DNA from: a virus
Reading direction: 5' to 3' (one strand)
IMG/VR virus record: IMGVR_UViG_3300044825_001089
Span: 1-45,313 of that record
Length of the DNA stretch: 45,313 bases
Part shown: positions 2,238-20,014 of the stretch, in pieces
Numbering within the stretch: position 1 is the stretch's first letter
How the letters are laid out: every line of letters begins with the position of its first letter
The notes under the pieces: generated by a model
Databases searched by the model: none
Told to the model about the DNA's origin: nothing
The model's input: the letters and a program-made list of their open reading frames with translations, nothing else
Program-made: the position numbers and the translations under genes

Positions 2238-2468
2238 TCAGAATTTAACTTCGGACCTCTCATATTCCTCTACTACCTTTTCGAGGAACCCAATCTCGAT
2301 AACCAGCTGCTTCACCAATTGGATCAGCTTGCCAAGGTCATCGCCATTAACGATGCGAGGAAGTGCCTCATACCGTTTAATGATCGCTTCAAAATCTGAT
2401 TTACTCATCCGTGATTTGCTTGGCCAATAGCTAGGCCAAATCTCAATCTTGTTGCTCTCCGGTTCCAT
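2238..2468 (-). CDS. hypothetical protein
   Basis: A 76-residue protein, MEPESNKIEIWPSYWPSKSR..., predicted helical after residue 25 (KSDFEAIIKRYEALP...LIQLVKQLVIEIGFLEKVVEEYERSE). The start at 2468 lies behind the very strong GAGGAGGAGAAGG; a longer frame with a poly-Arg leader only translates that purine run. It overlaps the upstream gene by 26 nt. The function is unknown. Confidence 0.6.
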   Translation of the reverse strand: MEPESNKIEIWPSYWPSKSRMSKSDFEAIIKRYEALPRIVNGDDLGKLIQLVKQLVIEIGFLEKVVEEYERSEVKF

Positions 2469-4808: not shown

Positions 4809-4820
4809 TCCTATCTCCGA

Positions 4821-5638: not shown

Positions 5639-5657
5639 AGCTCTAATCCTCATCCTT

Positions 5658-7235: not shown

Positions 7236-7258
7236 GATCCTATCTCCTTTTCCTTTAC

Positions 7259-7957
7259 TCATTGCTGATTCAACCATTCAGTAACTTCAGACCATTGTAC
7301 ATCAGTGAGTGTATTAAAGTCAATGGTTGGGAATGATTTTCTAAAATTTTCTTTCAGGTCAGGGTTGGTGGTAGCCTTCGCCTTGAACAGTTCAGCAATT
7401 TGCTTCTTTTTCGTAGCGTCGATGAACTTAACCGAAACTTTGGGCGTATCATACCTTGGGATGTCCTCCACTTCAGTCTCATCCAGAAACGACAATCCAA
7501 CCATAGACAGAGTGCAACGGCGAAGTGCTTTAGTGTGGCACTTCATGTAGGCGTTGGCCAAATCCAATCCCATCATGGTTGTGGGGATAAATACATCGCC
7601 CCTGTTGATTCCGTATCGTCCAGACTTGTCTTGCATCTTGACCTTAACTGAATAGATTCTAGTCTTCTCGTCAAACTTCTCTTCAGTATCTACAATTGAA
7701 ATGCCGTGAATCCGACATAGCTGATCCGTGCAATTGCGTGTAGCGTACAACCGCTCCTTGCCATTCAGAACGATATATCCAAACGGCTGGGTAAGATGAT
7801 TGAGCCCAACGCTTTCGCAAGTCTTCAGATATAAGGCGCGTTTCTCTTGAGGGGAAAGCTTGGCTAAATCGCCCTTAATCAGCGCAGTATTGATTGCGTC
7901 CCAATTAGAGACTGGCTGAATTCCTGTTTCCTGTTTCACTTCCTGAATCTCATTCAT
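7259..7957 (-). CDS. RecT-like / single-strand annealing-type phage protein
   Basis: A 232-residue protein. The pattern YLKTCESVGLNHLTQPFGYI, then RNCTDQLCRIHGISIV, then ANAYMKCHTKALRRCTLSMVGLSFLDETEVED resembles a phage protein family that I recall being annotated as RecT-like or recombination protein. The conserved 'K-C-x-T-K-A-x-R-R' segment and the 'DETEV' end are typical. I cannot confirm the family without a profile search. The start is fixed by GGAGATAGGACG. Its place directly upstream of the helicase and SSB-like protein supports a role in annealing or recombination. Confidence 0.65.
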   Translation of the reverse strand: MNEIQEVKQETGIQPVSNWDAINTALIKGDLAKLSPQEKRALYLKTCESVGLNHLTQPFGYIVLNGKERLYATRNCTDQLCRIHGISIVDTEEKFDEKTRIYSVKVKMQDKSGRYGINRGDVFIPTTMMGLDLANAYMKCHTKALRRCTLSMVGLSFLDETEVEDIPRYDTPKVSVKFIDATKKKQIAELFKAKATTNPDLKENFRKSFPTIDFNTLTDVQWSEVTEWLNQQ

Positions 7958-7982
7958 CGTCCTATCTCCTGTTTAGTTTGGA

Positions 7983-8270
7983 CTACTTCAACAACTCACT
8001 ACGCAGAATCCTAGTCGAATCCCCGATGATTAGTCGCAGTGCTATCCTACCGCCTTCAACACTCTCCAGATAAACCCCGCCATCGTCAACCCCAAATGAA
8101 TCCCCAATCCGCATCTCATACTGGTAACCATCCAGAGAGATGATGGCTGGCCCCTCGTTAGGGAAGACCTTCTCTACTTTAACTACTCGCTTAGTCTTCT
8201 TCTGCTGGTCGAGCAGTAGAATCTCTTCGCCGGCCTTGCGACTGATAATCAGTCCACCTATACGCACCAT
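7983..8270 (-). CDS. CsrA-like RNA-binding regulator with central insertion
   Basis: A 95-residue protein. It opens MVRIGGLIISRKAGEEILLL, matching the start of CsrA/RsmA (M-L-[IV]-L-[ST]-R-K-x-G-E-x-I-x-I), and ends GGRIALRLIIGDSTRILRSELL, matching the CsrA end (V-x-L-G-[IV]-x-A-P-x-x-x-x-[IV]-x-R-x-E-[IL]). CsrA is usually 55-70 residues, so about 25-30 extra residues lie between these parts. The conserved RNA-contact Arg in the RXE motif corresponds to the R of LRSEL. CsrA binds GGA in ribosome-binding sites, and this arm is full of repeated GGAGATAGGA boxes, which are potential targets. The start lies behind GGAGATAGGAT. Confidence 0.7.
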   Translation of the reverse strand: MVRIGGLIISRKAGEEILLLDQQKKTKRVVKVEKVFPNEGPAIISLDGYQYEMRIGDSFGVDDGGVYLESVEGGRIALRLIIGDSTRILRSELLK

Positions 8271-8281
8271 ATCCTATCTCC

Positions 8282-8740
8282 TTAATTCATACTCTTTGCG
8301 ATAGTAACCAAAAGAACTTCCAGATATTCCAGTGGCCAGCGACCACCGTTGAGCAACTTCAGGCTACTGCTCAGATGGTTTGGAACGATATTCATCAGCA
8401 GTGCATGAACATCGTTCCCACTAGCCACATTATACACAGTTGCTGCAACTTGGTTTCGTTCTTTAGGCAACGATCCAAGATAGTGAGAAAGAATTTCGTC
8501 GGCATTGGAAAACACGGATGAATCCGCAATCTCATCTGGCGATAGCTTATTCCTAAGCTCGCCAACTGCTCCGGTGACATTGTGATGTAAAAATCGTTTC
8601 ATCACTTCATTCAGGATCGCAGCATCAAATGTGCCGTCGATTTGATTGATCTGTAGCCTCATCCTGTCCATGACATCTTGATGTAGACGATCCAGATGGC
8701 GAACAAAGATTGCACTAGCCTCAGTTTCTGGAGAAGTCAT
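8282..8740 (-). CDS. hypothetical protein
   Basis: A 152-residue, mainly helical protein, MTSPETEASAIFVRHLDRLH..., with no motif I recognise. I chose the ATG at 8740, behind GGAGGGAAACGA. It begins inside the end of the small membrane-protein gene (20-nt overlap), so it is coupled to it. The C-terminal part (GRWPLEYLEVLLVTIAKSMN) is hydrophobic. Confidence 0.6.
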   Translation of the reverse strand: MTSPETEASAIFVRHLDRLHQDVMDRMRLQINQIDGTFDAAILNEVMKRFLHHNVTGAVGELRNKLSPDEIADSSVFSNADEILSHYLGSLPKERNQVAATVYNVASGNDVHALLMNIVPNHLSSSLKLLNGGRWPLEYLEVLLVTIAKSMN

Positions 8741-8873
8741 TTCGTTTCCCTCCACTGAGGTGGGTATTGGATTTTAGGATTAAACCTATGAGCCAGTAAA
8801 GCCCAAACATGACCATCCAGAGAGGGATGGCAATGCAGGCCCATCCAGCGAACCAGATTAGATTATCCAGCAT
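8721..8873 (-). CDS. small two-segment membrane protein
   Basis: A 50-residue protein, MLDNLIWFAGWACIAIPLWM.... Residues 4-34 are almost entirely hydrophobic (Trp-rich; VMFGLYWLIGLIL), enough for one long or two short membrane segments, followed by a polar tail ending GGKRNDFSRN. The start overlaps the upstream stop as TGATG behind AAGGGCGAG. It resembles early phage membrane peptides or a small holin/antiholin in size and shape, but its place in the early arm argues against lysis. Confidence 0.6.
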   Translation of the reverse strand: MLDNLIWFAGWACIAIPLWMVMFGLYWLIGLILKSNTHLSGGKRNDFSRN

Positions 8874-9118
8874 CACTCGCCCTTACCGCTGGTATAAGAA
8901 TCAATCAGGAAAACGAGGTACTGCTGGCATTTCTTCAAATCTGTTACCCCGCCTTTTTCCCTGAATCTGAATAGATACTTATATATACAGGCGACACAGT
9001 AGTCCTCAAAACCCTTCTGACCTACCGCCGATTTAATCGCAGTCCAGCACGATACGCCATCGTTACATTTCGGAAGATAATGCGCTGGATTGACTGGATT
9101 GATTGGGTCACTGTTCAT
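8873..9118 (-). CDS. DUF3310 protein
   Basis: An 81-residue protein. It matches DUF3310: N-P-[AS]-H-Y near the start (VNPAHYLPKC), a Trp/Ala helix (SCWTAIKSAVGQKGFEDYCVACIYKYLFRFREKGG) and DLKKCQQYLVFLID. This is a small domain widespread in phages whose molecular role is not established; nucleotide metabolism has been suggested because it occurs fused or next to such genes. The ATG at 9118 follows GGAGTATTCTAG. The end overlaps the membrane-protein start. Confidence 0.8.
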   Translation of the reverse strand: MNSDPINPVNPAHYLPKCNDGVSCWTAIKSAVGQKGFEDYCVACIYKYLFRFREKGGVTDLKKCQQYLVFLIDSYTSGKGE

Positions 9119-9302
9119 CTAGAATACTCCTTATCCTTGATTCCAATTGGGTCTGTTTATCCATGTAGTACAGAGCTTCAGCGAATGCTTCGACCAAAAT
9201 CTTTTTAGATTCGGGACTAAGCTCTTGGTACAGCTTTCCAGCGTCCACAACGGATTTGGAAAATAGCTCAGCCAGCTTGATATCATCATCTACAGTGGGC
9301 AT
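9108..9302 (-). CDS. small helical hypothetical protein
   Basis: A 64-residue, all-helical acidic protein (MPTVDDDIKLAELFSKSVVD..., ending QLESRIRSILDEQ). It starts inside the end of the sigma-like gene (13-nt overlap) behind AAGGGGAATGGA. Its position suggests it is made together with the sigma-like factor; an accessory or antagonist role is possible but has no sequence support. Confidence 0.55.
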   Translation of the reverse strand: MPTVDDDIKLAELFSKSVVDAGKLYQELSPESKKILVEAFAEALYYMDKQTQLESRIRSILDEQ

Positions 9303-9844
9303 TCCATTCCCCTTTCCTCTGCGTACTTACGCATCCTCCTTATAGCACTCCTGTAACACTCAGAAGTGGTTCCAATTGGCTTTCCCATCAGCTTGGATAT
9401 TTCTCTGCGACTCATGCCATCGCACATGAATCCAACCACTGTTCGCTGATATTCTGTTAAGGGCTCCATCAACTTTATTATTACCGATCTCTTGTCACGA
9501 ACGCTGAAGCACTCCTCTATATCTCCAGAAAGTTCACCTTGAATATTGTCTATAATCGTGAAGCTGCACTTCCTATTCCTCCTCTTTATGAAGTGTTTCA
9601 ACTGCTTCCTATGCAAATACATTCCACCGGCAGCATAGGTTGAAAATCTAGTAATTCCAGAATCGAAAGTACGAGCAGACTTCCACAGAGATATCAGCAT
9701 CTCTGATTCATATTCCTCATGGGTCATCCCCCTGAGTTTTCCATATTTATGTGTGAACCAGTAAACTAATTTCATGTTGTCATCTACTAGCTTCCTGACC
9801 AACTCGTCAGAATTTGTTTGCTTTGTGATTGGCGCACTAATCAT
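9290..9844 (-). CDS. phage-encoded sigma-70-like factor
   Basis: A 184-residue protein with sigma-70 domain order. Residues 14-75 (LVRKLVDDNMKLVYWFTHKYGKLRGMTHEEYESEMLISLWKSARTFDSGITRFSTYAAGGMYLHRKQLKHFIKRRNR) correspond to region 2 (N-x-x-L-V, then the W-K-[AS]-x-x-x-F-D and F-[ST]-T-Y-A motifs). Residues 125-178 (MEPLTEYQRTVVGFMCDGMSRREISKLMGKPIGTTSECYRSAIRRMRKYAE) form a region 4 helix-turn-helix. Region 3 is short, as in ECF-type factors. The start lies behind GGAGACAGGA. It probably directs RNA polymerase to phage promoters, for example those of the middle or late genes. Confidence 0.85.
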   Translation of the reverse strand: MISAPITKQTNSDELVRKLVDDNMKLVYWFTHKYGKLRGMTHEEYESEMLISLWKSARTFDSGITRFSTYAAGGMYLHRKQLKHFIKRRNRKCSFTIIDNIQGELSGDIEECFSVRDKRSVIIKLMEPLTEYQRTVVGFMCDGMSRREISKLMGKPIGTTSECYRSAIRRMRKYAEERGMECPL

Positions 9845-9853
9845 TCCTGTCTC

Positions 9854-10015
9854 CTATTTCCGAACTGTTACAGAAACTGCTCCGTCCTCATACTGATAGC
9901 TTGCTGTAACTGAAATCTCTATCGGTCGAGGACGGGGCGTATTCCGCTCATAACACCTACATCCTACGCTCCAGAACGACAACACGAACAGACCGATGAT
10001 TGACATTCTAGGCAT
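9854..10015 (-). CDS. small putative lipoprotein
   Basis: A 53-residue frame, MPRMSIIGLFVLSFWSVGCR.... A hydrophobic segment (residues 4-18) ends in SVGC, an acceptable lipobox with Cys19, then a Pro/Arg stretch (RNTPRPRPIEI) and a beta-like tail. The ATG lies behind AGAGGAGCAACTAAT. It overlaps the end of the upstream gene by 52 nt. Small phage lipoproteins act as outer-membrane spanins, exclusion proteins or receptor blockers. The early-arm location favours superinfection exclusion over lysis, but that is inference. Confidence 0.55.
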   Translation of the reverse strand: MPRMSIIGLFVLSFWSVGCRCYERNTPRPRPIEISVTASYQYEDGAVSVTVRK

Positions 10016-10188
10016 ATTAGTTGCTCCTCTGTCCTAATCCTGAGTTTACCGTTCCTATACTCCACCCACTCTGATTTATCGCCACTATCTCCGATAAACT
10101 TTACGATCCGATCCATCATCTTACAGACACACAGTCCAGAAGTGGCAGCAATACGGTTTAGTCCGGTAATAGTGGTAGAGCGCAGCAT
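9964..10188 (-). CDS. small Cys-rich hypothetical protein
   Basis: A 74-residue protein, MLRSTTITGLNRIAATSGLC.... It has Cys pairs CVC near residue 20 and C-x-x-C...C-x-C-C in the last 15 residues (ICLECQSSVCSCC), suggesting metal binding. The ATG lies behind ACAGGATATTAGCC. The 52-nt overlap with the lipoprotein frame leaves open which is the main product; both have ribosome-binding sites. Confidence 0.45.
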   Translation of the reverse strand: MLRSTTITGLNRIAATSGLCVCKMMDRIVKFIGDSGDKSEWVEYRNGKLRIRTEEQLICLECQSSVCSCCRSGA

Positions 10189-10234
10189 GGCTAATATCCT
10201 GTCTAGAATGTAGGCGGGAACCAGTCAGTCTAGA

Positions 10235-10861
10235 TTATGATGCCGTCTGCTGCAACCTCGCCTTCGTCCTTCGATATGATTCTCTATTGACTATCCTTTC
10301 TTGCAATACACGGCATGAATCACAGTATTTAGAATTTCTGTTGGGATATCTCACAATAAAATCGCTGCAAACAGCGCAACTAGCAACACTACCAGCACGG
10401 CCAAATCCAGTCCGTATAGCAGTAAGTAGTTTTGTATCATTTTTTTTAACTTCACCACCACTAGCGATTCTCTGGATCGTCTCCTTCCATTCCGTTGGAA
10501 AGGCCGAAATAACTGAATCCATCTCATCCCTGTGATCCTCCGACAGATCGGGCATCCGTGAATTAGAGATACTATCCAAAGATGAATCGGATGGAATTGC
10601 CTTATTTCGATTCCTCCATCTATTAACCGTATTCCGACAATCCTTCCACTTAGTCCTAATTAGATTCTTGAGTAAGGTGGCCAGCTGCCCCTTCGACTCA
10701 TCATGCCATACAACGGACTGCATAAGCATAATCAGAATCTCCTGCATCCAGTCATCAGAATCCATTCCTATCGGTCTCTTATATTTTCTATGATAGTAGT
10801 AAGCTAAATTTATATTTCTTTCTACTATCCTCTGCTGCTCCTCTGTTAATGGATCAAACAC
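10235..10861 (-). CDS. sigma-like protein with C-terminal Cys cluster
   Basis: About 208 residues. The N-terminal 70 residues (LTEEQQRIVERNINLAYYYHRKYKRPIGMDSDDWMQEILIMLMQSVVWHDESKGQLATLLKNLIRTKWKD) have the sigma region 2 pattern: N-x-x-L-A-Y, D-x-x-Q-E, and a position like F-x-T-[YL]. No convincing region 4 follows. Instead residues 165-190 (CAVCSDFIVRYPNRNSKYCDSC) form a C-x2-C...C-x2-C ribbon and the tail is basic. The start is probably GTG at 10861 behind AAGGGG, or TTG three bases upstream. It may be an atypical sigma factor or a sigma-derived DNA-binding protein. Confidence 0.65.
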   Translation of the reverse strand: MFDPLTEEQQRIVERNINLAYYYHRKYKRPIGMDSDDWMQEILIMLMQSVVWHDESKGQLATLLKNLIRTKWKDCRNTVNRWRNRNKAIPSDSSLDSISNSRMPDLSEDHRDEMDSVISAFPTEWKETIQRIASGGEVKKNDTKLLTAIRTGFGRAGSVASCAVCSDFIVRYPNRNSKYCDSCRVLQERIVNRESYRRTKARLQQTAS

Positions 10862-10977
10862 CAAAAAGCCCCTTTCGATTCTTTAGGCCCTAGAATCGCT
10901 TATAATTGACTTTCTACTTTTATTGAGCGATTGGCCAAAATTAAAATAATTTCAAGTTAAACGCAATCCTATTGATT

Positions 10978-11586
10978 CTAAATGGCATTCCCGAATGGCA
11001 GTCTAACCAATCCAGAAATATCAACGATCAAACTTATTGAAGATATTCTCAGCTTGTCCGATCTCCATCCTTCAGTCATGCCACTAAAATTGCTATCAAA
11101 ATCAAATAAATTCTGAAAATTCATTGATTTTATAAATTTAATAAAATAAAATTCAACTCTCGATGCAGTTTCTGGAGAACCAACCCATAACTCAATTACC
11201 TTGAATCCTTTCCTTCCGTGATAGGCTAGGCGGGTTTCTGGTTGTCCGGTTATCCCTATTTTTTGGATGTTCAATTTTTCGTTTTCAATTAAATAAACAA
11301 ATCCAGCTATACATCCTTCCTTCAGTGGCCTCTTTTGGACAGTATTTTGTTCATCTTGTTTTTTCCGAGAATACTTAATATGAGAAGAGCATAGTCCAGA
11401 AGACTTGGTAATTGATATTTTATTACATCCCTCGTACTGGCATCCTCCAAGCTTTCTTTTTTTAACTTCGATTATCATAGCCTTCTCCTCTTCCGTTATC
11501 TTTTTTGATAATACGCTTGAATGTTTCAAGCACAAACCGCCCCTGACCATTGGCATTTTCTTTTTGCAGACTTCGCAAAATTTCAT
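10978..11586 (-). CDS. putative GIY-YIG-type endonuclease with Cys/His N-terminus
   Basis: A 202-residue protein. The first 80 residues carry C-x2-C (CEVC), C-x2-H (CLKH), C-x4-C (CQYEGC) and C-x2-H (CSSH) groups, consistent with two small zinc fingers. Residues 95-155 (GFVYLIENEKLNIQKIGITGQPETRLAYHGRKGFKVIELWVGSPETASRVEFYFIKFI) follow the GIY-YIG/T5orf172 pattern: VYLI, K-I-G-I-T, R-L after a short gap, and a later Glu (VEFYF). The zinc-finger plus GIY-YIG layout is typical of free-standing homing endonucleases. The ATG lies behind GGGGGTTAGTTT. AT-rich codon use differs from its neighbours, consistent with mobility. Confidence 0.65.
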   Translation of the reverse strand: MKFCEVCKKKMPMVRGGLCLKHSSVLSKKITEEEKAMIIEVKKRKLGGCQYEGCNKISITKSSGLCSSHIKYSRKKQDEQNTVQKRPLKEGCIAGFVYLIENEKLNIQKIGITGQPETRLAYHGRKGFKVIELWVGSPETASRVEFYFIKFIKSMNFQNLFDFDSNFSGMTEGWRSDKLRISSISLIVDISGLVRLPFGNAI

Positions 11587-11632
11587 AAACTAACCCCCAC
11601 AAAGAGAGAGTCAGTTTAACAGAAATATCAGA

Positions 11633-11866
11633 TCAAAACAATTTACTCCTCTCCCTTAATCCGATGCTCGTTCCATAGACTGATGTTTCCCCAAATTTCG
11701 GAAGCACCTCAATAAAGTAGTCGAAACCCGATTTAACGCAAAATTCATGGGCATTCCGGGCAAGCTGATTGGCCCTCTCTGGGCTTTTGGCTACTACTTG
11801 CTTCTGGATAGTCCTTCCATTGGCCCAATAGCGCAGTAGGACAAGATATGAATCTCCGGGAATCAC
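11633..11866 (-). CDS. hypothetical protein, GTG start
   Basis: A 77-residue protein beginning at GTG 11866 behind AGGAGGTCTAAGCC. It is a mixed alpha/beta small protein (DSYLVLLRYWANGRTIQKQVVAKSPERANQLARNAHEFC...). The pattern of a beta hairpin followed by a helix is common in small phage proteins, but I do not recognise the family. Confidence 0.55.
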   Translation of the reverse strand: MIPGDSYLVLLRYWANGRTIQKQVVAKSPERANQLARNAHEFCVKSGFDYFIEVLPKFGETSVYGTSIGLRERSKLF

Positions 11867-11869
11867 GGC

Positions 11870-12136
11870 TTAGACCTCCTGCCAGATTGCAGATTTAGAG
11901 ATAATTTCATCAAACAATTCAGTAGCTGATGCTTCAGCATGAACCATAGCCGAAATGCAGCAGTGATGATCTGCTTTGGAGTGGCGGGAGTTATGCCCTT
12001 CAATCCAAACCATATGGACATACTTCCCAGTAACTACGCAACGGTAGACAGAGAGCATTATGTCACTGTTTGCGTTTAGGCTAATTGCTGACCAGATTCC
12101 ATTGCCAGATGAATTGGTGTTCCAAGAAATCTTCAT
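11870..12136 (-). CDS. hypothetical protein, first gene of leftward operon
   Basis: An 88-residue protein, MKISWNTNSSGNGIWSAISL..., with a beta-rich first half and a His/Cys patch (HNSRHSKADHHCC). The start is the ATG at 12136 behind GGAGACAGGACG, about 45 nt after the predicted start of transcription from the promoter at 12187-12215. As the first gene of the leftward operon it is probably expressed immediately after infection. The function is unknown; early small phage proteins often act against host systems. Confidence 0.6.
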   Translation of the reverse strand: MKISWNTNSSGNGIWSAISLNANSDIMLSVYRCVVTGKYVHMVWIEGHNSRHSKADHHCCISAMVHAEASATELFDEIISKSAIWQEV

Positions 12137-12186
12137 CGTCCTGTCTCCTCTTTCCGTCACCGAATCATCCCCGATTCGATGATTAA

Positions 12187-12215
12187 GTTCTAACACCATC
12201 ATTCGGCAGAGTCAA
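12187..12215 (-). promoter_or_regulatory. leftward early promoter
   Basis: On the minus strand TTGACT (12210-12215) and TAGAAC (12187-12192) are separated by 17 bp, a good sigma-70-type spacing. The first gene of the leftward block starts about 50 bp downstream. The -35 context GCTTGACTC recurs at 15431-15439. Confidence 0.6.
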
Positions 12216-12251
12216 GCCCAGAACTAAAATATTTTTTCATTGAATTAAAAA

Positions 12252-12272
12252 TACTATTATTAAGTAATAGTA
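12252..12272. promoter_or_regulatory. AT-rich perfect hairpin / operator-like dyad
   Basis: Arms TACTATTA and TAATAGTA are perfectly complementary (8 bp) around a 5-nt loop. It lies upstream of the leftward promoter. A dimeric repressor or activator site is possible. There is no T-run matching a terminator. Confidence 0.45.
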
Positions 12273-12453
12273 GAGTTGGCCTATTTTGGGCCTTATTGCA
12301 GACTGAGATGTAAATTGTCTCAAAGTAAGTCATTGGAAAATAAGGGTTTAGGATAACTAGAGATGCGCGAGGTGGATTTCCCATATATAATAGATTAGTG
12401 ACGCATAATTTAGTGAATTAGATTTAGTGAATGAGCCAGAGCCAGTAGAGCGA

Positions 12454-12772: not shown

Positions 12773-13228
12773 ATGTCTGAATTCGATTCTACACCAATTG
12801 ACCCATATCGCAATCAATTAAATAAGTATCCTTCCTACTCCAGATTGGAGAAGGAGGATTGCGAACTGTACGCTTATTACAGAGATTTATCCAAGGAGCA
12901 GAACGCTGGCGATTACATTGGCATGGTCTGCTACTTTGAAGATTGGATGCGTTACTACTACATGATGGATTTGGTAGAGAGGGGCGTTAGGCTTATCCCT
13001 CTCGTCACTTCTGGATCGTTGGGTAATAGCTCGGATCAGGATAAGGTTTACATCCTTGGATTGGCTAATGAAATACTTTCCAAGGTGTACGATGATCGGG
13101 ACTATTCGGTGTATACTGATGAGATGGTGGATAGGATATTCAAGGAATTGGATCGCCATTTGGGCGAACTCAAAGAGAAGTGGAGAAAGGAAGATGAAGA
13201 AAGAGATAGATCTCTCGGCATCAGATAA
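12773..13228 (+). CDS. hypothetical protein, first gene of rightward operon
   Basis: A 151-residue helical, acidic protein. Residues 12-50 (YRNQLNKYPSYSRLEKEDCELYAYYRDLSKEQNAGDYIGM) loosely follow sigma region 1.2 (Y-L-x-x-I-x-x-x-P-L-L-[TS]-x-E-E-E...A-R/D). The following helices (YFEDWMRYYYMMDLVERGVRLI) could mimic the start of region 2, but the -10 recognition motif is absent. It may be a sigma-derived or polymerase-binding protein. Sure only that it is a real gene: the start has GGAGAG and the promoter is close. Confidence 0.65.
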   Translation: MSEFDSTPIDPYRNQLNKYPSYSRLEKEDCELYAYYRDLSKEQNAGDYIGMVCYFEDWMRYYYMMDLVERGVRLIPLVTSGSLGNSSDQDKVYILGLANEILSKVYDDRDYSVYTDEMVDRIFKELDRHLGELKEKWRKEDEERDRSLGIR

Positions 13229-13361
13229 TGTCCTATTCCTAGCCAAGCTGACCGATAAGGCCCAATCCTACTGCAAGGAAAAGAAAGTAGAATTGAGCCT
13301 AGAGAATGTGATTAAGGCTAGGGATTGGCTAATCAAAAAACAGTTGGAAGCTGTCGAATGA
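13194..13361 (+). CDS. small hypothetical protein
   Basis: A 55-residue charged helical protein, MKKEIDLSASDNVLFLAKLT.... The start at 13194 is behind AAAGGAAG and overlaps the previous gene by 35 nt. It ends in the ATGA overlap with the next gene. The function is unknown. Confidence 0.55.
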   Translation: MKKEIDLSASDNVLFLAKLTDKAQSYCKEKKVELSLENVIKARDWLIKKQLEAVE

Positions 13362-13645
13362 GTATGGTCGAAAAAATCGAGCAACTAGCGGAATTTTCTG
13401 AACAGGATATTCCGCTATTTGCCGATTTCGATGACTGCATTATCGGAGCCATTTATCGGCGTGGAAAGTATTATGCAGTTTATTCACGATCCAAGATGCT
13501 GCGTCAATTGATGAATGATAATGGCTGGGACTACTTCGATTCCTTGGATTGGTTTTGCCATAATATCGAATGCGCCTACGGTGGCCCTCAATCGCCTCTT
13601 ATCCTGATTGACGAGATGCCGGATGGTATCGGGGACTTAATGTGA
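13358..13645 (+). CDS. hypothetical protein
   Basis: A 95-residue protein, MSMVEKIEQLAEFSEQDIPL.... It contains LFADFDDCIIGAIYRRGKYYAVYSRSKMLRQLMNDNGWDYFDSLDWFCHNIECAYGG..., a beta hairpin followed by helices with D-x-x-x-x-x-F-x-x-N-x-x-C-A-Y. I recall a similar 'A..YF..N.. AY.G' pattern in small phage proteins of unknown function. Coupled to both neighbours by 4-nt overlaps. Confidence 0.6.
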   Translation: MSMVEKIEQLAEFSEQDIPLFADFDDCIIGAIYRRGKYYAVYSRSKMLRQLMNDNGWDYFDSLDWFCHNIECAYGGPQSPLILIDEMPDGIGDLM

Positions 13646-14067
13646 CAATCCTAGAAACACTCTCCAAGGCCAATCCAATCTGGTCAATTACAGTCCCGAT
13701 GCCAACCGCAAATAATGCGATGTATCTTCCAGTTGGCGGGAAAGGGAAGGGGCGAAATAGAATCATAATCAGCCCAGAGTATCGACTGTGGAGGGATTCC
13801 CTTAATCTGCTTGAGTGGGACAGTCCTACCATCGAAGGGCGAGTATTTATTGAAATTGAGATTAGGGCTGGCGAAGGCATGACGGACAAGTCAGACCATG
13901 ACGGATTTATAAAGTCTTCGATTGATGCACTCGTCCGTCATGGAGTGTTGTGTGATGATAATCGAAAATATGTTGCCGGTTCGATCACATATTTTGGTCG
14001 CCCAGCTGTAAACTGTTTCCATGAGGGCTTCGCAGAGATTCGAGTTTACCCGGAGAATGTACTGTGA
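13642..14067 (+). CDS. RusA-like Holliday junction resolvase
   Basis: A 141-residue protein, GTG start. It fits RusA-family endonucleases (about 120-140 residues): the N-terminal PMPTANNAMYLPVGGKGKGRNRIIISPEYRLWRD (P-x-x-x-N-x-x-Y...R), then the acidic metal site TDKSDHDGFIKSSIDALVRHGVLCDDNRKYV, with the D-x-D/N-N-x-x-K-x-x-x-D-x-L layout and DD. RusA cuts four-way junctions formed in phage recombination and prepares branched DNA for packaging. It complements the annealing protein of the left arm. Confidence 0.85.
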   Translation: MTILETLSKANPIWSITVPMPTANNAMYLPVGGKGKGRNRIIISPEYRLWRDSLNLLEWDSPTIEGRVFIEIEIRAGEGMTDKSDHDGFIKSSIDALVRHGVLCDDNRKYVAGSITYFGRPAVNCFHEGFAEIRVYPENVL

Positions 14068-14291
14068 CTTATGTAAAGATTTGGAATGAATTGCGGATGC
14101 TGCAAGGGCAGATTTATGTCTTGGAGATCAAGAAGAGGTCTGGCGATATTACTGCGGATCAGCTTGAGACTCTCGTTGATTTGAATCAAGAATATGGAAA
14201 ATGGAACAGGATTGCTATTCTCTGGGACAAGCATGGTGAAGCAGGGTTCGATGAAAACGACAATCCAAGATGGGAACTACTCAATGACTGA
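14064..14291 (+). CDS. hypothetical protein, GTG start
   Basis: A 75-residue acidic helical protein (VTYVKIWNELRMLQGQIYVL...). GTG at 14064 lies behind GGAGAATGTACT and overlaps the resolvase stop by 4 nt. The function is unknown. Confidence 0.55.
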   Translation: MTYVKIWNELRMLQGQIYVLEIKKRSGDITADQLETLVDLNQEYGKWNRIAILWDKHGEAGFDENDNPRWELLND

Positions 14292-14493
14292 GCAGCAGAA
14301 GCAACGGGTGGCTGAGCTTACAGAGTTCATTCATTCCAAGTTGATTGATCCCGATAAATTCCATGTGACTGTGTCGGATTGTCTTCTCCTTCTGGAAAGT
14401 CAATGGGAGGACTATTGCGCTGGATCAGAGCAGGCATTCCAGATTCAGAGGGAGAAGGAGATTTTAGAAACACTTTCCAAGGAGAATGGATAA
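14284..14493 (+). CDS. small hypothetical protein
   Basis: A 69-residue helical protein, MTEQQKQRVAELTEFIHSKL.... The ATG at 14284 overlaps the previous stop by 8 nt. The end is joined to the next gene by TAATG. The function is unknown. Confidence 0.55.
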   Translation: MTEQQKQRVAELTEFIHSKLIDPDKFHVTVSDCLLLLESQWEDYCAGSEQAFQIQREKEILETLSKENG

Positions 14494-14768
14494 TGCAAAT
14501 TGATGAGAATAAATTCCGTTTAGCTTGTCAGTTAAAAGATAAGGATTGGCTGATCGAAAGGGTTATTCAGGCTAACAGTCTGATATTCGATGGTCATGCG
14601 CTAATCAAAAAGGCGCAGATTATGATTGATGGGACGATGAAAGCTATATCGGATCATCAAGGAGAATCAACACCGCATACTGACGCAGATATTAAGCTAT
14701 ATACCAGTGTTGCATCACTCATTCGTGCCCTTGGATGGTCAGGTGATTCTAATCGGGAAAATGAGTAG
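14493..14768 (+). CDS. hypothetical protein, last gene of operon
   Basis: A 91-residue protein, MQIDENKFRLACQLKDKDWL..., behind AAGGAGAATGGATA and overlapping the previous stop as TAATG. It is mainly helical, with a C-terminal TSVASLIRALGWSGDSNRENE. No family is recognised. A near repeat of TTCTAATCGG plus AAAAT occurs at its 3' end and again about 60 bp downstream. Confidence 0.55.
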   Translation: MQIDENKFRLACQLKDKDWLIERVIQANSLIFDGHALIKKAQIMIDGTMKAISDHQGESTPHTDADIKLYTSVASLIRALGWSGDSNRENE

Positions 14769-15432
14769 GCTTGCGAAATCTATAGGATTTGAAAGTCGAT
14801 TTATTTCTAATCGGAAAATCGAGGGGGTGAGGAAATCTAGCTAGTTATTTATACGATTTATTTCTAAACTAAAATTTTAGATGCCTAAACTAATGTGGAT
14901 TGAATTGCAGTTGCCATAGTTTAATTGCTGGCAAAGGAGTTATGGAGATTTTGCAATTGAATTTGGTAGCAATTCTTAGCTAATTTGACGCAATAGTTGC
15001 GGAGATTATCGGGCTATTCTCCGCTCCATCTCTGGATCGTCCATACGCAGGATTGCGAGAAGATTTGGAGGGATGCGGATTTTGAATAAATTATGCGGAT
15101 CGTGGATGTTAGCTAGTTAGCGTAGGTTGCCCAGATTGCATATTTTATCTAGATTACCTATCCTGCCAATACCACCCAGACTGCCCATACCCCCTAGGTC
15201 GCCAAGAGTGCCCAGACGGCCTATCTTAACAGGCTTGCCAATCTTACCAATCTTACCAAAACTACCGATCTTACCAAAACTATTTATTTTACCAATATTA
15301 CCCAAATAGAATAAACCTCCAATCCTATTTAAATTAGACTATTGGGCAAACAATAGGCTAATTATCGGTAGTGAAAAAATTCAATGGTTAAAAAATTATT
15401 TTTTATTTTTTTTATTTTTTTTAAATTTTTGC
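14769..15432. other. long gene-free AT-rich region with repeats
   Basis: About 660 bp without a credible gene. It contains repeated CGATTTATTTCTAA (near 14797 and 14854), the perfect palindrome CTAAAATTTTAG (14869-14880), repeated AGCTAGTTA-type words, the 9-bp periodic array at 15120-15308, a hairpin with arms CTATTG/CAATAG (15339-15356, extendable with one mismatch) and T/A runs at 15389-15430. This looks like a replication or control region rather than decayed coding DNA. Confidence 0.55.
15120..15308. repeat. degenerate 9-bp periodic array
   Basis: About 20 imperfect units near TTACCAATC / TTGCCAGAC with a 9-bp period. Because the period is a multiple of 3 it leaves open frames on both strands: L-P-[IK] repeats on plus and G-[KRS]-[IL] repeats on minus. 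Neither frame has a clear ribosome-binding site. Units are most alike in 15238-15290. Confidence 0.7.
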
Positions 15433-15461
15433 TTGACTCATTCCGATTACAATTCTACCAT
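15433..15461 (+). promoter_or_regulatory. candidate promoter of the AT-rich cassette
   Basis: TTGACT (15433-15438) is followed after 17 bp by TACCAT (15456-15461). The -35 context GCTTGACTC is the same as in the leftward promoter at 12187-12215, and a long T/A tract lies just upstream. The -10 is only a partial match. Confidence 0.45.
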
Positions 15462-15519
15462 GACATTGTTCCAATGGTGGAACGATAAAGGAATAGGAAT
15501 AGGAATTGGAGGAATTAGA

Positions 15520-15819
15520 ATGGGTTTGCCTAGTTTTCAATCTTATGCTAATTATGCGAATAAATCATCCGCATATAATTCGCTACAATTCTTTTTGCCC
15601 AATGTTACCCTATGGTTTTCATATGGTTCCCTAGTGGCATTTAAACCATTGGGCAATCCAACCATAATATCCGAGAATATTTGGGGGAATACTAGTGGGA
15701 AGCATATTAACCTAATCGAACCAAATAAAAAAAATAGGATTCCTAGGGAATTATTTAAATTGTTGTGGGATGAATTCGAATCAACCGGAATGATTTCAAA
15801 TTATCCTAGTCAATCCTAA
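15520..15819 (+). CDS. hypothetical protein, cassette gene 1
   Basis: A 99-residue protein, MGLPSFQSYANYANKSSAYN.... I chose the ATG at 15520 because TTGGAGGAATTAG lies directly before it; a longer frame from 15460 only adds a repetitive leader (KGIGIGIGG). It is rich in Asn, Ser, Phe and Tyr, with a beta-like middle (FFLPNVTLWFSYGSLVAFKPLG) and a C-terminal helix (RELFKLLWDEFESTGMI). It is AT-rich and heavily uses TTG, AAT and ATT. No family is recognised. Confidence 0.6.
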   Translation: MGLPSFQSYANYANKSSAYNSLQFFLPNVTLWFSYGSLVAFKPLGNPTIISENIWGNTSGKHINLIEPNKKNRIPRELFKLLWDEFESTGMISNYPSQS

Positions 15820-15834
15820 TTGGAGGTTTTCACA

Positions 15835-16122
15835 ATGGTTGTATATGCGGATGATTTAGACAAAGAATGTCAATTGTTTGTTGATCGGCCGGAATGGTTA
15901 TATCGCAACGGTATAAGATTGACTGAGACAGCGACGGGATACGGTAAAAAGCTTACAACGGATTTTAAGATTAAATTCATGGGAAGGAATTACCGAATTT
16001 ATACAACGGTATATTCCAATAATGGTTCCAATTGGTTCCAATGCAAAAAATACGGTAAGGTCTTCATCCGTAATTGTGGCATGGATTGGGGCAAGCTTTA
16101 CACCGTTGGAGGGTTAGTCTAA
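15835..16122 (+). CDS. hypothetical protein, cassette gene 2
   Basis: A 95-residue protein, MVVYADDLDKECQLFVDRPE..., behind TTGGAGGTTTTCACA. It is beta-rich and aromatic, with YRIYTTVYSNNGSNWFQCKKYGKVFIRNCGMDWGK. The 24-bp stretch encoding YSNNGSNW (16012-16035) recurs with one change at the end of cassette gene 4. It is joined to the next gene by TAATG. The function is unknown. Confidence 0.6.
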   Translation: MVVYADDLDKECQLFVDRPEWLYRNGIRLTETATGYGKKLTTDFKIKFMGRNYRIYTTVYSNNGSNWFQCKKYGKVFIRNCGMDWGKLYTVGGLV

Positions 16123-16382
16123 TGAAGGATAATTGGGAATTAATTACCTATGATATTTGGGGTAATGAATCGGATGGTTGGGAAGTTAATCAATCGTTCC
16201 GAACTGGCAATAGAATAGAATTCGATGAATCAATTCAGGATAAGGAATTGGAGGAATTGGTTTTCAATAAATTAGGATTTATTGGGACCGTTGACAATTC
16301 ACAATCATTCAATGATTGTATTTATTTTTCCGATGAATCCAATGGTTGCCCATTGTTTGAACTCCGGAGGGTTATCCGATGA
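16122..16382 (+). CDS. conserved-type small phage protein, cassette gene 3
   Basis: An 86-residue protein. ELITYDIWGNESDGWEVNQSF followed by ...IYFSDESNGCPLFELRRV is a layout I recall from small unnamed proteins of diverse phages (T-Y-D-[VI]-W-G-N-x-x-D-G-[YWF]-E-V-N at the start, 'G.P.FEL' at the end). The function of those is unknown. It is the only cassette gene that looks familiar to me. The start overlaps the previous stop (TAATG) behind TTGGAGGGTTAGTC. Confidence 0.6.
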   Translation: MKDNWELITYDIWGNESDGWEVNQSFRTGNRIEFDESIQDKELEELVFNKLGFIGTVDNSQSFNDCIYFSDESNGCPLFELRRVIR

Positions 16383-16687
16383 ATCTTAGGAATTATCGCA
16401 ATTTGTGCAAAAAATGGGCTAAAATGCGTGGGTTATATGATTCCCATGAATTGGATAGTTGGAGGTTTTCAAGAGATTCTGCGATTCATTGGTACGCTAC
16501 GGAATGGCATGACGGACAATGGTCCCAATTATATAAGATTATTGGCCAAATAGGATACAATCCATCTCGATTGGCAAGGAATGCTAAGGAGGATTTGAAA
16601 GAGGATTATACGGCATGGGAATTGTATAAATTCCTTAATCGTCGGGCCAAATATTATTCCAATAATGGTTCAAATTGGAGGATTTAA
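16379..16687 (+). CDS. hypothetical protein, cassette gene 4
   Basis: A 102-residue protein, MNLRNYRNLCKKWAKMRGLY.... It is basic and helical, rich in Trp and Tyr, ending AKYYSNNGSNWRI, whose DNA repeats part of cassette gene 2. The ATG overlaps the previous stop by 4 nt behind CGGAGGGTTATCC. The function is unknown; the charge would suit nucleic-acid or protein binding. Confidence 0.6.
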   Translation: MNLRNYRNLCKKWAKMRGLYDSHELDSWRFSRDSAIHWYATEWHDGQWSQLYKIIGQIGYNPSRLARNAKEDLKEDYTAWELYKFLNRRAKYYSNNGSNWRI

Positions 16688-16689
16688 AA

Positions 16690-16938
16690 ATGGACCGTTG
16701 CAATTGTGGAAGGAATTCTATTTGGGGTTATACGGTTAGTTGGGAATACAATGGTTGTGGTTATATACGGCAACAATGTAAAGGGCATTTTAAGGAATCG
16801 ACGGAATATTTTAGGCAAAGAAAAATATATGATTACAATAAACCAAATTTTAAACCGGGAAGGTGGCAATATTTTTCTACCGATTACATTGGTAATGTAA
16901 TGGACGGCAATGGTGGTGAATTGGTTTATGGTGGATAA
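16690..16938 (+). CDS. hypothetical Cys/aromatic-rich protein, cassette gene 5
   Basis: An 82-residue protein, MDRCNCGRNSIWGYTVSWEY.... It has CNCG near the start and further Cys (GCGY, QQCKG), then KPNFKPGRWQYFSTDYIGNVMDGNGGELVYGG. The four Cys could hold a zinc ion. The ATG at 16690 is behind TTGGAGGATTTAAAA. The function is unknown. Confidence 0.6.
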   Translation: MDRCNCGRNSIWGYTVSWEYNGCGYIRQQCKGHFKESTEYFRQRKIYDYNKPNFKPGRWQYFSTDYIGNVMDGNGGELVYGG

Positions 16939-16953
16939 TTGGAGGATTTAGGA

Positions 16954-17205
16954 ATGAATCAGTCAATTGAAACAATTGAACAATCGGAATTGATCGAATC
17001 AATTCTATCTAAATTAACCCATTATGAATTAAGTTTATTATCTAATAGAATATGGGATTCTATGGTAGAATCCTACGGATATCAACCGTTTGGGTTCGAC
17101 GCACGAACAATGCGGATGAATCATCCGGTTGATTGGGAAGCTTACCAATTGGTTAATAGGTTTGAAGAATTAAAATTGGAGGATAAAAAAAATAATAAAA
17201 AATAA
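16954..17205 (+). CDS. hypothetical protein, cassette gene 6
   Basis: An 83-residue acidic protein, MNQSIETIEQSELIESILSK..., with helices through residue 35 and a C-terminal Lys/Asn tail. The ATG lies behind TTGGAGGATTTAGGA, the same box as gene 5. The motif SYGYQPFGFDARTMRMNHPVDWEAYQLVNRFEEL has no match I know. The function is unknown. Confidence 0.6.
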   Translation: MNQSIETIEQSELIESILSKLTHYELSLLSNRIWDSMVESYGYQPFGFDARTMRMNHPVDWEAYQLVNRFEELKLEDKKNNKK

Positions 17206-17292
17206 ACTTGAAAATCTAATTTGCCGATTATAGTATTAGGTTGGATTCATGGTGAATCTAATTGGAACGGAATAGGAATTGGAGATTGGACT

Positions 17293-17700
17293 ATGCGAAC
17301 CATCGAAACAATTGAATTGGACCGGGTTCCAACTGGTGAGGATTCACTAACCAGCCGTAGGGATTGGAGGCCAATTCTAGCACAATTGGAGGCCAGACTA
17401 TTCCGCCGACAAATTATCCAACAATTTGGGAAGGATAATTTGGAGGCCAATTCTGTATCGGTAAGGGTTAAAATTCATTATGGGAATTACACCGAACCAG
17501 AAGTTGTGATTAACTACGATTTAGACAATGGTGAATCGACGGCACTAGCCTACCAAATTGAAATGAATTGTTGGACAAAATGGTCTGCCCAATCGGCAAG
17601 GATTTTAAAATTGGCAAGTAGCCTTACCGAAGAACAATTGGAGAATGCAAAAATGTTAGATAATAGGATTATCTTGAATTTGCTTGGATATTGGGAATAG
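17293..17700 (+). CDS. hypothetical protein, cassette gene 7
   Basis: A 135-residue protein, MRTIETIELDRVPTGEDSLT..., with helices (residues 25-50), a beta section (SVSVRVKIHYGNYTEPEVVINYDLDNGESTALAYQIEM) and a helical end. The start at 17293 is behind GGAGATTGGACT. The DNA just upstream contains GGAATAGGAATTGGAG (17269-17284), which also stands before cassette gene 1 (15496-15511), so the cassette begins and ends with the same leader word. The function is unknown. Confidence 0.6.
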   Translation: MRTIETIELDRVPTGEDSLTSRRDWRPILAQLEARLFRRQIIQQFGKDNLEANSVSVRVKIHYGNYTEPEVVINYDLDNGESTALAYQIEMNCWTKWSAQSARILKLASSLTEEQLENAKMLDNRIILNLLGYWE

Positions 17701-17727
17701 AATCCCTAAGAATTAAATAACCCAATG

Positions 17728-17762
17728 AACCCTAAGATTAAATTCTTAGGGTTTATTTTTTT
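17728..17762 (+). terminator. rho-independent terminator closing the cassette
   Basis: AACCCTAAGA (17728-17737) pairs perfectly with TCTTAGGGTT (17744-17753) around TTAAAT, followed by TATTTTTTT. A second upstream arm, CCCTAAGAATT (17704-17714), is perfectly complementary to 17741-17751, so an alternative hairpin using the same 3' arm is possible. Confidence 0.85.
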
Positions 17763-17908
17763 GTATATTGGATTGAATAATTTAATTAAATAATTGGATT
17801 GGATTGGATGGATTTATAAATATATATTCCCATATACTCTGCTTCCCTAATTATAATTATATATCTTCTTATCTTGTCAAGGCTAAAATTGAAAAAATAT
17901 TTTTTTCC

Positions 17909-17957
17909 AATATGCGACAATTTTTTCGTCAATTAGAATATGCGACAATTTTTTCGT
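17909..17957 (+). repeat. two exact 21-bp direct repeats
   Basis: The copies lie at 17909-17929 and 17937-17957 (28-bp period); each contains ATGCGACAATTTTTTCG. A third, weaker match (CAGACAATAGTTG) follows at 17962. Their position about 220 bp upstream of the late promoter candidate suggests binding sites for a regulator, or packaging or origin signals. Confidence 0.8.
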
Positions 17958-18171
17958 ATGTCAGACAATAGTTGTTTGAACAATTGTTGGAAAACCAAAG
18001 ATATCAATTGATAGAGGAAATCAGTGGGGGGATAGCAGTCATCGCCTTTGACCCCCCAATCTCCAAGAAATTTCAATTCCTATTTCTTAGAATTATCTTT
18101 ACTAAATTCCTAAACTTAGTAATGATTCCAATCGGGAAATCGACCTTCTCCTAATCCATCTTGATTCAAAC

Positions 18172-18180
18172 TGCTATAAT
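18172..18180 (+). promoter_or_regulatory. extended -10 promoter before terminase genes
   Basis: TGCTATAAT is a perfect extended -10 (TGn plus TATAAT). No -35 at correct spacing is seen, which is usual for extended -10 promoters or for ones that need an activator or a phage sigma factor. The small terminase gene starts 46 bp downstream behind AAAGGATTTTCTT. Confidence 0.6.
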
Positions 18181-18225
18181 GATTAACCTAATTTTTACAG
18201 AATAAATTTTCTAAAGGATTTTCTT

Positions 18226-18762
18226 ATGCAAATTGACCTACTCGACATCGACGATAAGGAAACCCGCAAAGCTGCTACGGGTCGAGTACGCAATCAGAAT
18301 AAAGCTCTCCAACAGGTTACCGACGAAGAGATCATCGAAACGCTCAAGAAGTGCCGTGGGCTCCTCTATCTCGCTGCCAACATCCTTGGAGTGCCACACG
18401 CTACTCTCGCTTACCGAATCAATAACACTCCAGAACTCCTCGAATCAATGAAGGATCAGAGAGGCAAGACTCTCGATCTAGCCGAAGCGAAGCTTATGCA
18501 GGCGGTAGACAAGGGAGAGCAATGGGCCATCACCATGCTTCTCCGTACTCTGGGGCGTGAACGGGGATATGTGGAGCGTCAAGAAGTATCCAATGTGACT
18601 ACCGTCAAGCTCCAGATCGTCGAAGAGATTGTTGACGCAGACTCCAAGCAGATCGAAGTCAAGGTGACTCCAGCAGTCGAATACAAGCCATCCAATCTTC
18701 CAGAAGGGTTCAATGATGCCTCCGAAGCCGAAAGGGTTGCCGTCGAATCCGACGAAGCCTGA
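18226..18762 (+). CDS. terminase small subunit
   Basis: A 178-residue protein. Residues 35-70 (EEIIETLKKCRGLLYLAANILGVPHATLAYRINNTPELLE) form a helix-turn-helix of the type found in small terminases and in related Fis-like domains. Residues 75-115 (GKTLDLAEAKLMQAVDKGEQWAITMLLRTLGRERGYVER) match the oligomerisation part seen in small terminases (A-E-x-x-L...G-x-x-x-A-x-x-x-x-L-x-x-x-G...RGY). It would recognise the packaging start site and feed DNA to the large subunit, whose gene overlaps it by 50 nt. Confidence 0.85.
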   Translation: MQIDLLDIDDKETRKAATGRVRNQNKALQQVTDEEIIETLKKCRGLLYLAANILGVPHATLAYRINNTPELLESMKDQRGKTLDLAEAKLMQAVDKGEQWAITMLLRTLGRERGYVERQEVSNVTTVKLQIVEEIVDADSKQIEVKVTPAVEYKPSNLPEGFNDASEAERVAVESDEA

Positions 18763-20014
18763 GAAGGCTAAATCGGAAACGATAACCAAGACCTACAAGC
18801 TCCATAAAATCCAGCACGACTTCCATCACTCTGGAGCGTTGTATCGTGGATATGTAGGCGGGATCGGTAGCGGTAAATCTTGGATTGGTGCTTACGACAT
18901 TCTCCGTAGAGCCATGAGCGAGGACGGCAAGGGTCGCCTCTACATGGTCATCGCTCCCACCTACAATGTCCTCCAAGACGCAACAATGAGGACGATCTAC
19001 CAAATAGCCGATGACATGGGAGTCACAAAGGAGAAGTGGAAGCAACCGCCAAGATTGGTGCTTGCCAACGGCAGCGAAATCATCTTCCGATCTGGTGAAG
19101 ACCCGGACAAGCTGCGTGGACCGAACATCAGCGGAATCTGGCTAGACGAAGCATCCGTGATGGATGAGGAAGTATTCAACATCTGTATTGGTCGCCTCCG
19201 TGAAGGTGGCAGAGCGGGATGGCTAACAGCTACCTTCACCCCCAAAGGCATGATCCATTGGACTTACGAAGTATTCGGGCGAGGCGACAGGGAGAATACA
19301 GAACTCTTCCGATCCAAGACTTCCCAGAATCCATTCTTGGCCCGTGAATTCGTTAGCGCAGTATCCAAGCAGTATTCCGACAAGCAGGCCAACCAAGAAC
19401 TAGACGGCGAATTCGTCGATCAAGAAGGAGCGGAGTGGCCCAATTCTCACTTTGGAGAGTCCATCTGGTTCGATGATTGGCCACATAATTCCAATATCAA
19501 AATTAAGACGATGGCGGTTGACCCGTCCAAGGGGCGTGATGCCCGTCATGGCGACTACACCTCAATCGTCAAGCTGGCCAGAGATCAAGACGGCATCCTC
19601 TACTGTGATGCCACTATGCGCCGAATGGATTCAGAGCATCTCGTAGCCATGACCGTATCGGAAGCTGCCCAATTCGATCCTGACGGGCTAGGAATCGAAA
19701 CAAACCAATTCCAACATCTCCTTGCGACTCAAATCCTTGAGGAGTCAAAAAAGCAAGGAAATGCTATTCCAATCATGCAAATTTATAATAATATATCAAA
19801 GGATGTGCGTATCAGAAGACTTGGCCCATACCTTGCCAATAAGCTGATTAAATTCAAGCGTAATGAAGGCACAAGACTTCTGGTGGCGCAACTCCGAGAA
19901 TTCCCACTAGGGAAACATGATGACGGGCCAGACGCATTAGAGATGGCTCTACGCACCATGATTTCCCTCTGGAATGGCAAGAGAAATCCCCAAGTAAGGC
20001 GGATTACGGCATGA
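18713..20014 (+). CDS. terminase large subunit
   Basis: A 433-residue packaging motor. The ATPase has Walker A GGIGSGKS (residues 49-56) and Walker B ISGIWLDEAS (near 145). The C-terminal RNase H-like nuclease shows a first Asp in TMAVDPSKG, a second acidic site in DGLGIETN and a third in GKHDDGPDALEMA. This is a complete terminase (usual range 400-550). It starts at the double ATG 18713/18716 inside the small-subunit gene, behind CAGAAGGG. It cuts concatemers and pumps DNA into the prohead through the portal encoded next. Confidence 0.95.
   Translation: MMPPKPKGLPSNPTKPEKAKSETITKTYKLHKIQHDFHHSGALYRGYVGGIGSGKSWIGAYDILRRAMSEDGKGRLYMVIAPTYNVLQDATMRTIYQIADDMGVTKEKWKQPPRLVLANGSEIIFRSGEDPDKLRGPNISGIWLDEASVMDEEVFNICIGRLREGGRAGWLTATFTPKGMIHWTYEVFGRGDRENTELFRSKTSQNPFLAREFVSAVSKQYSDKQANQELDGEFVDQEGAEWPNSHFGESIWFDDWPHNSNIKIKTMAVDPSKGRDARHGDYTSIVKLARDQDGILYCDATMRRMDSEHLVAMTVSEAAQFDPDGLGIETNQFQHLLATQILEESKKQGNAIPIMQIYNNISKDVRIRRLGPYLANKLIKFKRNEGTRLLVAQLREFPLGKHDDGPDALEMALRTMISLWNGKRNPQVRRITA

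What the first reader, a model, noticed from the sequence alone, without database searches (positions are those of the whole stretch)
15433..17762. Self-contained AT-rich cassette of seven unknown small genes
Seven ORFs of 82-135 residues (15520-17700) stand between their own promoter candidate and a strong terminator, wedged between the early rightward operon and packaging genes. They share a ribosome-binding box (TTGGAGGATTTA and variants), an unusual codon style (TTG, ATT, AAT dominate; Trp, Tyr, Asn-rich proteins), and internal repeats: 24 bp at 16012-16035 and 16655-16678 (one mismatch), and GGAATAGGAATTGGAG at 15496-15511 and 17269-17284. Composition, boundaries and lack of known domains suggest a transferred accessory module, for example one acting against host defence. 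The functional part is inference.
Basis: partly seen in the sequence, partly recalled or inferred. Interest (0 to 1): 0.8.

Follow-up and report, generated by a model that had tools for sequence, protein, structure and literature searches.

The report
Swappable small-gene slot in freshwater phage
A virus of bacteria carries, between its DNA-repair and DNA-packaging genes, a block of seven tiny genes that almost identical viruses replace with completely different tiny genes, and the near-identical start signals shared inside each block look like the joints along which single genes are swapped.

Summary
Seven ORFs (82-135 aa, 15520-17700) form a + strand operon. It is the strongest compositional outlier of the 45-kb phage contig, has an odd codon style, and ends in an intrinsic terminator. 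The promoter candidate is no better than chance. "Transferred module" is supported. Contigs sharing about 94-98% DNA identity with the window (L002, L006, L007) carry unrelated small-gene cassettes at the same place upstream of TerS. Of the window's genes, only two have relatives at this slot elsewhere: c2 (L017) and c7 (L009, L010, L015, L017, L018). Cassettes have their own uniform gene-start leader around the Shine-Dalgarno site (0/5000 permutations after masking it), and nearly all end in their own terminator. Three single-gene gains, losses or swaps between close relatives break at leaders or stop codons; one crossover lies inside a 16-bp leader repeat. I read this as a moron-like accessory hotspot whose leaders resemble Start-Associated Sequences and serve as gene-exchange joints. 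Host-takeover or anti-defence function is plausible but untested: no domain, no significant fold match, only hints from c2 and c7 relatives.

The parts
14769..15519 (.). left edge of the slot: about 0.75 kb without a convincing gene between the last RusA-side gene (14493-14768) and the cassette
   Evidence: L006 is 98% identical up to 14887 and then diverges; L009/L010 are about 80% identical up to 15294
15120..15310 (.). degenerate 9-bp direct-repeat array (TTACCAATC type), noncoding
   Evidence: repeats seen; reading frames broken in L010
15433..15461 (+). candidate promoter TTGACT-17-TACCAT (weak, not above chance)
15496..15519 (+). leader of c1, GGAATAGGAATTGGAGGAATTAGA; its first 16 bases are identical to the c7 leader
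15520..15819 (+). c1, 99 aa, unknown; 38% over 81 aa to Microbacterium phage Gingerbug gp33
15818..15834 (+). leader of c2, AATTGGAGGTTTTCACA
15835..16122 (+). c2, 95 aa, phrog_3436 (E 1.9e-12); 63% to a gene in the L017 slot; distant relatives in Felixounavirus
16104..16121 (+). leader of c3 (CGTTGGAGGGTTAGTCTA), overlapping the end of c2
16122..16382 (+). c3, 86 aa, no relative found
16362..16378 (+). leader of c4 (CTCCGGAGGGTTATCCG), the most deviant one, inside the end of c3
16379..16687 (+). c4, 102 aa, no relative found; its C-terminus shares a 24-bp coding repeat with c2
16673..16689 (+). leader of c5, AATTGGAGGATTTAAAA
16690..16938 (+). c5, 82 aa, several Cys near the N-terminus, no relative found
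16937..16953 (+). leader of c6, AATTGGAGGATTTAGGA
16954..17205 (+). c6, 83 aa, no relative found
17269..17292 (+). leader of c7, GGAATAGGAATTGGAGATTGGACT
17293..17700 (+). c7, 135 aa; family found as last slot gene in L009/L010, L017 and L018 and at the same place in L015; similar domain in a Gemmata MAG and a Burkholderia plasmid
17724..17757 (+). intrinsic terminator of the cassette; relatives have a different stem at the same place
17999..18225 (+). conserved leader of the packaging operon; right edge of the slot
18226..18762 (+). right neighbour, taken as TerS from its position before TerL (profile match only to phrog_33852, unknown function)
18713..20014 (+). TerL, anchor used to find related slots

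Best explanation
The block is the present occupant of an exchangeable accessory-gene slot in a group of uncultured tailed phages, between RusA-side early genes and the terminase operon. The seven genes are probably read as one mRNA from a promoter upstream of 15520 that stops at the terminator 17724-17757. Each gene start carries nearly the same leader (AATTGGAG plus an A/T-rich spacer). The leader contains the Shine-Dalgarno site but is conserved beyond it, so it works like a Start-Associated Sequence, giving the genes coordinated translation. Because copies of the leader recur at each gene start, it also serves as short homology through which single ORFs are gained, lost or swapped. That would keep the cassette's leader uniform while its genes differ between phages identical elsewhere. 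The products are most likely small host-interaction proteins (takeover or counter-defence). Shown here: slot, turnover, leader uniformity, terminators, breakpoints at leaders or stops. Inferred: single transcript, translational role, active homologous recombination at leaders, and function.
For: Slot turnover: aligned flanks are 94-98% identical (L002, L006, L007), yet no homologous gene is shared with the window's slot (one 35-bp chance-level hit in L006). In L006 both flanks are held; in L002 and L007 the right one only. A RusA relative upstream of TerL is also found in L056 and L070, where it is 50% and 29% identical. Leader uniformity: within-slot similarity exceeds all label permutations with SD unmasked (0/2000) and masked (0/5000); window leaders versus 7 random window genes, 1/10000; versus random 22-mers of the cassette, 2/5000. 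c2 is 63% identical between the window and L017 but carries a different leader in each. Own terminators were found in the window and in L002, L006, L007, L009/L010, L017, L018 and L056. Breakpoints: L006/L007 junction inside a 16-bp leader repeat; L011/L020 ORF swap at the ATG, and a gene with its leader inserted right after a stop codon. These zones make up only 7-9% of the slots.
Against: Selection for intact ORFs alone would also push breakpoints to gene ends; only event A shows a repeat at the joint. No allele pair exists for the window's own cassette. Leader uniformity is weak in some slots (L002, L056: about 6 masked matches, near the structural-gene value of 5.8). TTGGAG also occurs 7 times inside ORFs, so part of the uniformity is a general word preference. 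No terminator was found at the slot end in L011/L020. No expression or functional data exist.
Confidence: 0.65

Rival explanations
1. Plain moron-type hotspot with illegitimate recombination: genes arrive by random joining, selection keeps intact ORFs, and leaders look alike only because genes in one cassette come from one donor genome with one style of ribosome-binding site.
For: Cassette-wide odd composition and codon style; the leader word is also enriched inside ORFs. The mycobacteriophage literature favours illegitimate joining at most mosaic boundaries (PMC3029335).
Against: Event A crosses over inside a 16-bp repeat; event B keeps the leader and changes the ORF from the ATG on; leaders of c2 and c7 orthologues differ between cassettes.
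Confidence: 0.25
2. Anti-defence island: the cassette is specifically a set of anti-restriction or anti-CRISPR genes expressed early in infection, with the shared leader marking that regulon.
For: Small, variable, non-homologous genes in a fixed slot. Archaeal virus early anti-defence genes share conserved upstream regulatory sequences (PMC11065993). A c7-like domain lies on a Burkholderia plasmid near a DNA methyltransferase.
Against: No informative domain hits in Pfam, PHROGs or NCBIfam; PADLOC was not searched; no significant fold match for c7; no wHTH (Aca-like) gene detected. This concerns function and is compatible with the slot model above.
Confidence: 0.35
3. The seven genes are diverged copies of one ancestral gene (local amplification), which would explain shared leaders and internal repeats.
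For: More near-exact 20-bp direct repeats than order-3 Markov nulls (5 vs 1.4); two L006 slot genes are real paralogues, 41%.
Against: No detectable similarity among the seven window proteins in the all-against-all search; c1, c2 and c7 have different relatives in other phages.
Confidence: 0.05

Closest known systems
Start-Associated Sequences (SAS) of Cluster K mycobacteriophages and Microbacterium cluster EF phages (PMC3203893, PMC7302621)
   Same: Repeated, one-orientation motif at the ribosome-binding position, conserved beyond Shine-Dalgarno pairing, confined to non-structural genes, mostly before ATG.
   Different: There one motif serves a genome or cluster; here each cassette has its own, even among phages with near-identical flanks. 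No ESAS-like inverted repeats were seen. Here the leaders are tied to gene-exchange breakpoints.
Phage morons
   Same: Extra genes present in one phage and absent from a relative, with own control signals and deviant composition.
   Different: Typically one ORF with promoter and terminator; here an operon of 3-8 genes in a fixed slot, with promoter-like sites between genes seen only in L011/L020.
Conserved boundary sequences proposed as joints of phage mosaicism (cited in PMC3029335; lambdoid phages from my own knowledge)
   Same: Short conserved sequence at gene borders proposed as a joint for homologous exchange of single genes.
   Different: Here the boundary sequence is the translation leader itself and is cassette-specific.
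Early anti-defence regulons of archaeal viruses (PMC11065993)
   Same: Unrelated small accessory genes tagged by one shared upstream regulatory sequence.
   Different: There it is a promoter; here a translation-start leader inside one operon, and no anti-defence activity is known.

Membership tests
Start-Associated Sequences | Conserved motif overlapping the RBS a few bases before the start codon | tested here: met
   TTGGAG in 6 of 7 leaders, ending 8-10 nt from ATG
Start-Associated Sequences | Conservation beyond Shine-Dalgarno pairing | tested here: met
   masked leaders still more alike than controls (1/10000; 2/5000)
Start-Associated Sequences | Restricted to non-structural genes | tested here: met
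   TTGGAG in 1 of 35 structural leaders and 0 of 23 leftward leaders
Start-Associated Sequences | Shared by all members of a phage cluster | tested here: not met
   motif differs between cassettes of phages with near-identical flanks
Start-Associated Sequences | Extended inverted repeats (ESAS) upstream of about half of the sites | tested here: not met
   no inverted repeat recurring at the leaders
Phage moron | Present in one phage, absent or replaced in a close relative between the same neighbours | tested here: met
   (L006 both flanks; L002, L007 right flank only)
Phage moron | Deviant base composition | tested here: met
Phage moron | Own promoter and terminator | tested here: inconclusive
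   terminator met; promoter not above chance
Boundary-sequence mosaicism | Exchange junctions lie within a short repeated boundary sequence | tested here: inconclusive
   one clear event (A, between relatives, not in the window); two more at the start or stop codon without a proven repeat at both ends
Anti-defence genes | Inhibits a host defence system | not testable with these tools
   needs experiment
Anti-CRISPR locus | aca-type helix-turn-helix gene next to the small genes | tested here: not met
   no HTH domain in any of the seven by Pfam

The most novel reading that the evidence does not exclude
The gene-start leaders are selected as recombination joints: each phage lineage keeps a private leader that homogenises along the cassette, making it a self-assembling gene-capture array (integron-like in effect, without an integrase) in which any incoming ORF that picks up the leader is both translated and exchangeable.
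Probability: 0.25. Interest if true: 0.8.

Novelty: new variant of a known kind. Interest (0 to 1): 0.5.

Why it matters
How phages swap single genes without breaking them is a long-standing question; illegitimate joining plus selection is the usual answer because boundary homology is rarely visible (PMC3029335). Here closely related phages differ by single genes and the joints can be read: they lie at cassette-specific translation leaders or stop codons. That makes the boundary-homology idea directly testable, and it gives a simple search rule (runs of small ORFs sharing an extended start leader) for accessory and possibly anti-defence genes in uncultured phages.

Tried and rejected
Pfam, PHROGs and NCBIfam on the window's proteins: only phrog_3436 for c2 is significant. 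Structure: c7 model pLDDT 77.6, no PDB match better than E 0.13; c2 model pLDDT 37, not searched. Donor search by leader pattern (22 viral contigs, none with a repeated-leader array) and by five-protein query: no donor found. ncRNA in 14770-15330 or 17900-18225: fold energy not unusual, no Rfam family. Gly-X-Leu repeat protein at 15117-15305 (-): rejected, frame broken in L010. Gene paralogy inside the cassette: no similarity. c7 in 95 genomes of the Gemmata MAG's family: found only in that MAG. Whole-slot repeat excess was present in L006, L009 and L011 but not in L017 or L018. Metagenome contigs and PADLOC were not searched.

Full report
What is there. The window is a 45,313-base virus record. 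A leftward operon (about 1-12400, minus strand; helicases, sigma-like proteins) and a rightward group (12773-14768, with a RusA-like resolvase) precede the packaging operon that starts at 18226 (small terminase subunit by position; TerL and portal by profile). Between them lie seven plus-strand ORFs, each with ATG and GGAG(G) about 8-10 nt upstream.

Composition. The cassette is the top outlier of the window by tetranucleotides, also after GC normalisation, with distinct codon use and more Trp, Tyr and Asn. TTGGAG occurs 13 times in the cassette, all on the plus strand: 6 in leaders and 7 inside ORFs in two frames. Inside ORFs it exceeds synonymous-codon shuffles (9 vs 1.7, a count that includes two leaders overlapping the preceding ORF).

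The slot. TerS- and TerL-anchored searches of viral contigs gave about 90 related loci. In L002, L006 and L007 the aligned flanking DNA is 94-98% identical to the window, yet nothing in the slot is related. L006 holds both flanks; L002 and L007 start inside the slot and show only the right flank. L009/L010, L011/L020, L017 and L018 carry further sets. Mid-size genes in these slots hit DUF932, GP88 and DUF7227. c7 is the last slot gene in L009/L010, L017 and L018 and sits at the same place in L015; c2 occurs in L017; c1 and c3-c6 occur in none of the relatives. Slots end with an intrinsic terminator whose stem differs from phage to phage, except L011/L020, where none was found. A RusA relative lies upstream of the slot also where it is only 50% (L056) or 29% (L070) identical.

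Leaders. Each cassette has its own start leader: window AATTGGAGG+A/T; L011/L020 GGAAAGGAAAGTGGATT; L006/L007 GGATAAGGAGTGATAGCA and AAAGGAGATAGGAT; L009 CAAAGGAGAATGGAAC; L018 AATTGGAGAnTGGACA. Similarity within slots exceeds permuted labels with SD unmasked and masked. Composition alone gives 6.16 masked matches, against 7.62 observed (2/5000). The leftward operon of the window has another repeated leader, GGAGAYAGGA (7 of 23 genes); structural genes show none.

Breakpoints. Event A: L007 519-576 equals L006 4177-4234 (97%), but L007 then has two extra genes before the gene that follows at once in L006; the L006 junction lies inside ATAAGGAGTGATAGCA, present twice in L007 (561-576, 985-1000). 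Event B: L011 3285-3509 versus L020 6289-6483, different ORFs behind the same leader, homology ending at the ATG and resuming at about the stop. Event C: L020 has a gene with leader (8316-8618) directly after a stop codon, absent in L011. Start-leader and stop zones are 7-9% of these slots. Because selection for intact ORFs already favours gene ends, I treat only event A as direct evidence for leader-mediated exchange. These are metagenome contigs; misassembly across a 16-bp repeat is unlikely but not excluded. In the window the identical 16-bp leader start at c1 and c7 brackets c1-c6, which would fit insertion of c1-c6 in front of a resident c7 (inference).

Function. c2 belongs with phrog_3436 and small proteins of Felixounavirus and Klebsiella phages; c1 resembles Gingerbug gp33, inside a run of small genes. 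A c7-like domain also occurs in a Gemmata MAG, in a longer protein whose C-terminal part matches plasmid proteins, some named "type I restriction endonuclease subunit M", and on Burkholderia plasmid pINT23. Those names are annotations, not tests. Nothing shows a biochemical activity. Host takeover or counter-defence is the usual role of such slots (general knowledge) and remains inference.

Placement. It works like SAS (PMC3203893, PMC7302621) plus boundary sequences and morons (both described in PMC3029335), but fails the SAS features of one motif per cluster and ESAS repeats. I call it a new variant of a known kind.

Noticed in passing
window 1-12400 (-): The leftward early operon has its own repeated gene-start leader, GGAGAYAGGA before ATG, in 7 of 23 genes; the two leftmost genes share a different one (GCYCGCTGCCGGGAGGGGAGTG).
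   Followed up: partly
L003 852-3131: Intein-like in-frame insertion in TerL right at the Walker A motif (GGIG|CTAPETLL...LWHHN|SGKSW), with a 259-aa ORF on the opposite strand (1054-1833); similar interruptions after codon about 53 in L019 and L020, and probably L057 and L058.
   Followed up: partly
window 15120-15310: Degenerate 9-bp direct-repeat array in noncoding DNA, kept in L010 although reading frames are broken there.
   Followed up: partly
L113, L115, L116: Among the genome-collection TerL matches, three of the five are Gemmata or Gemmataceae MAGs (best 46%, L113), so the host may be a planctomycete; binning errors are not excluded.
   Followed up: no
L011 3204-3232, 3589-3617, 5418-5446: In the L011/L020 slot some single genes have their own TTGACA-17-TATA-type promoter-like site as well as the shared leader.
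   Followed up: no
window 17909-17957: Two exact copies of AATATGCGACAATTTTTTCGT 28 bp apart between the cassette terminator and the packaging operon; function unknown.
   Followed up: no
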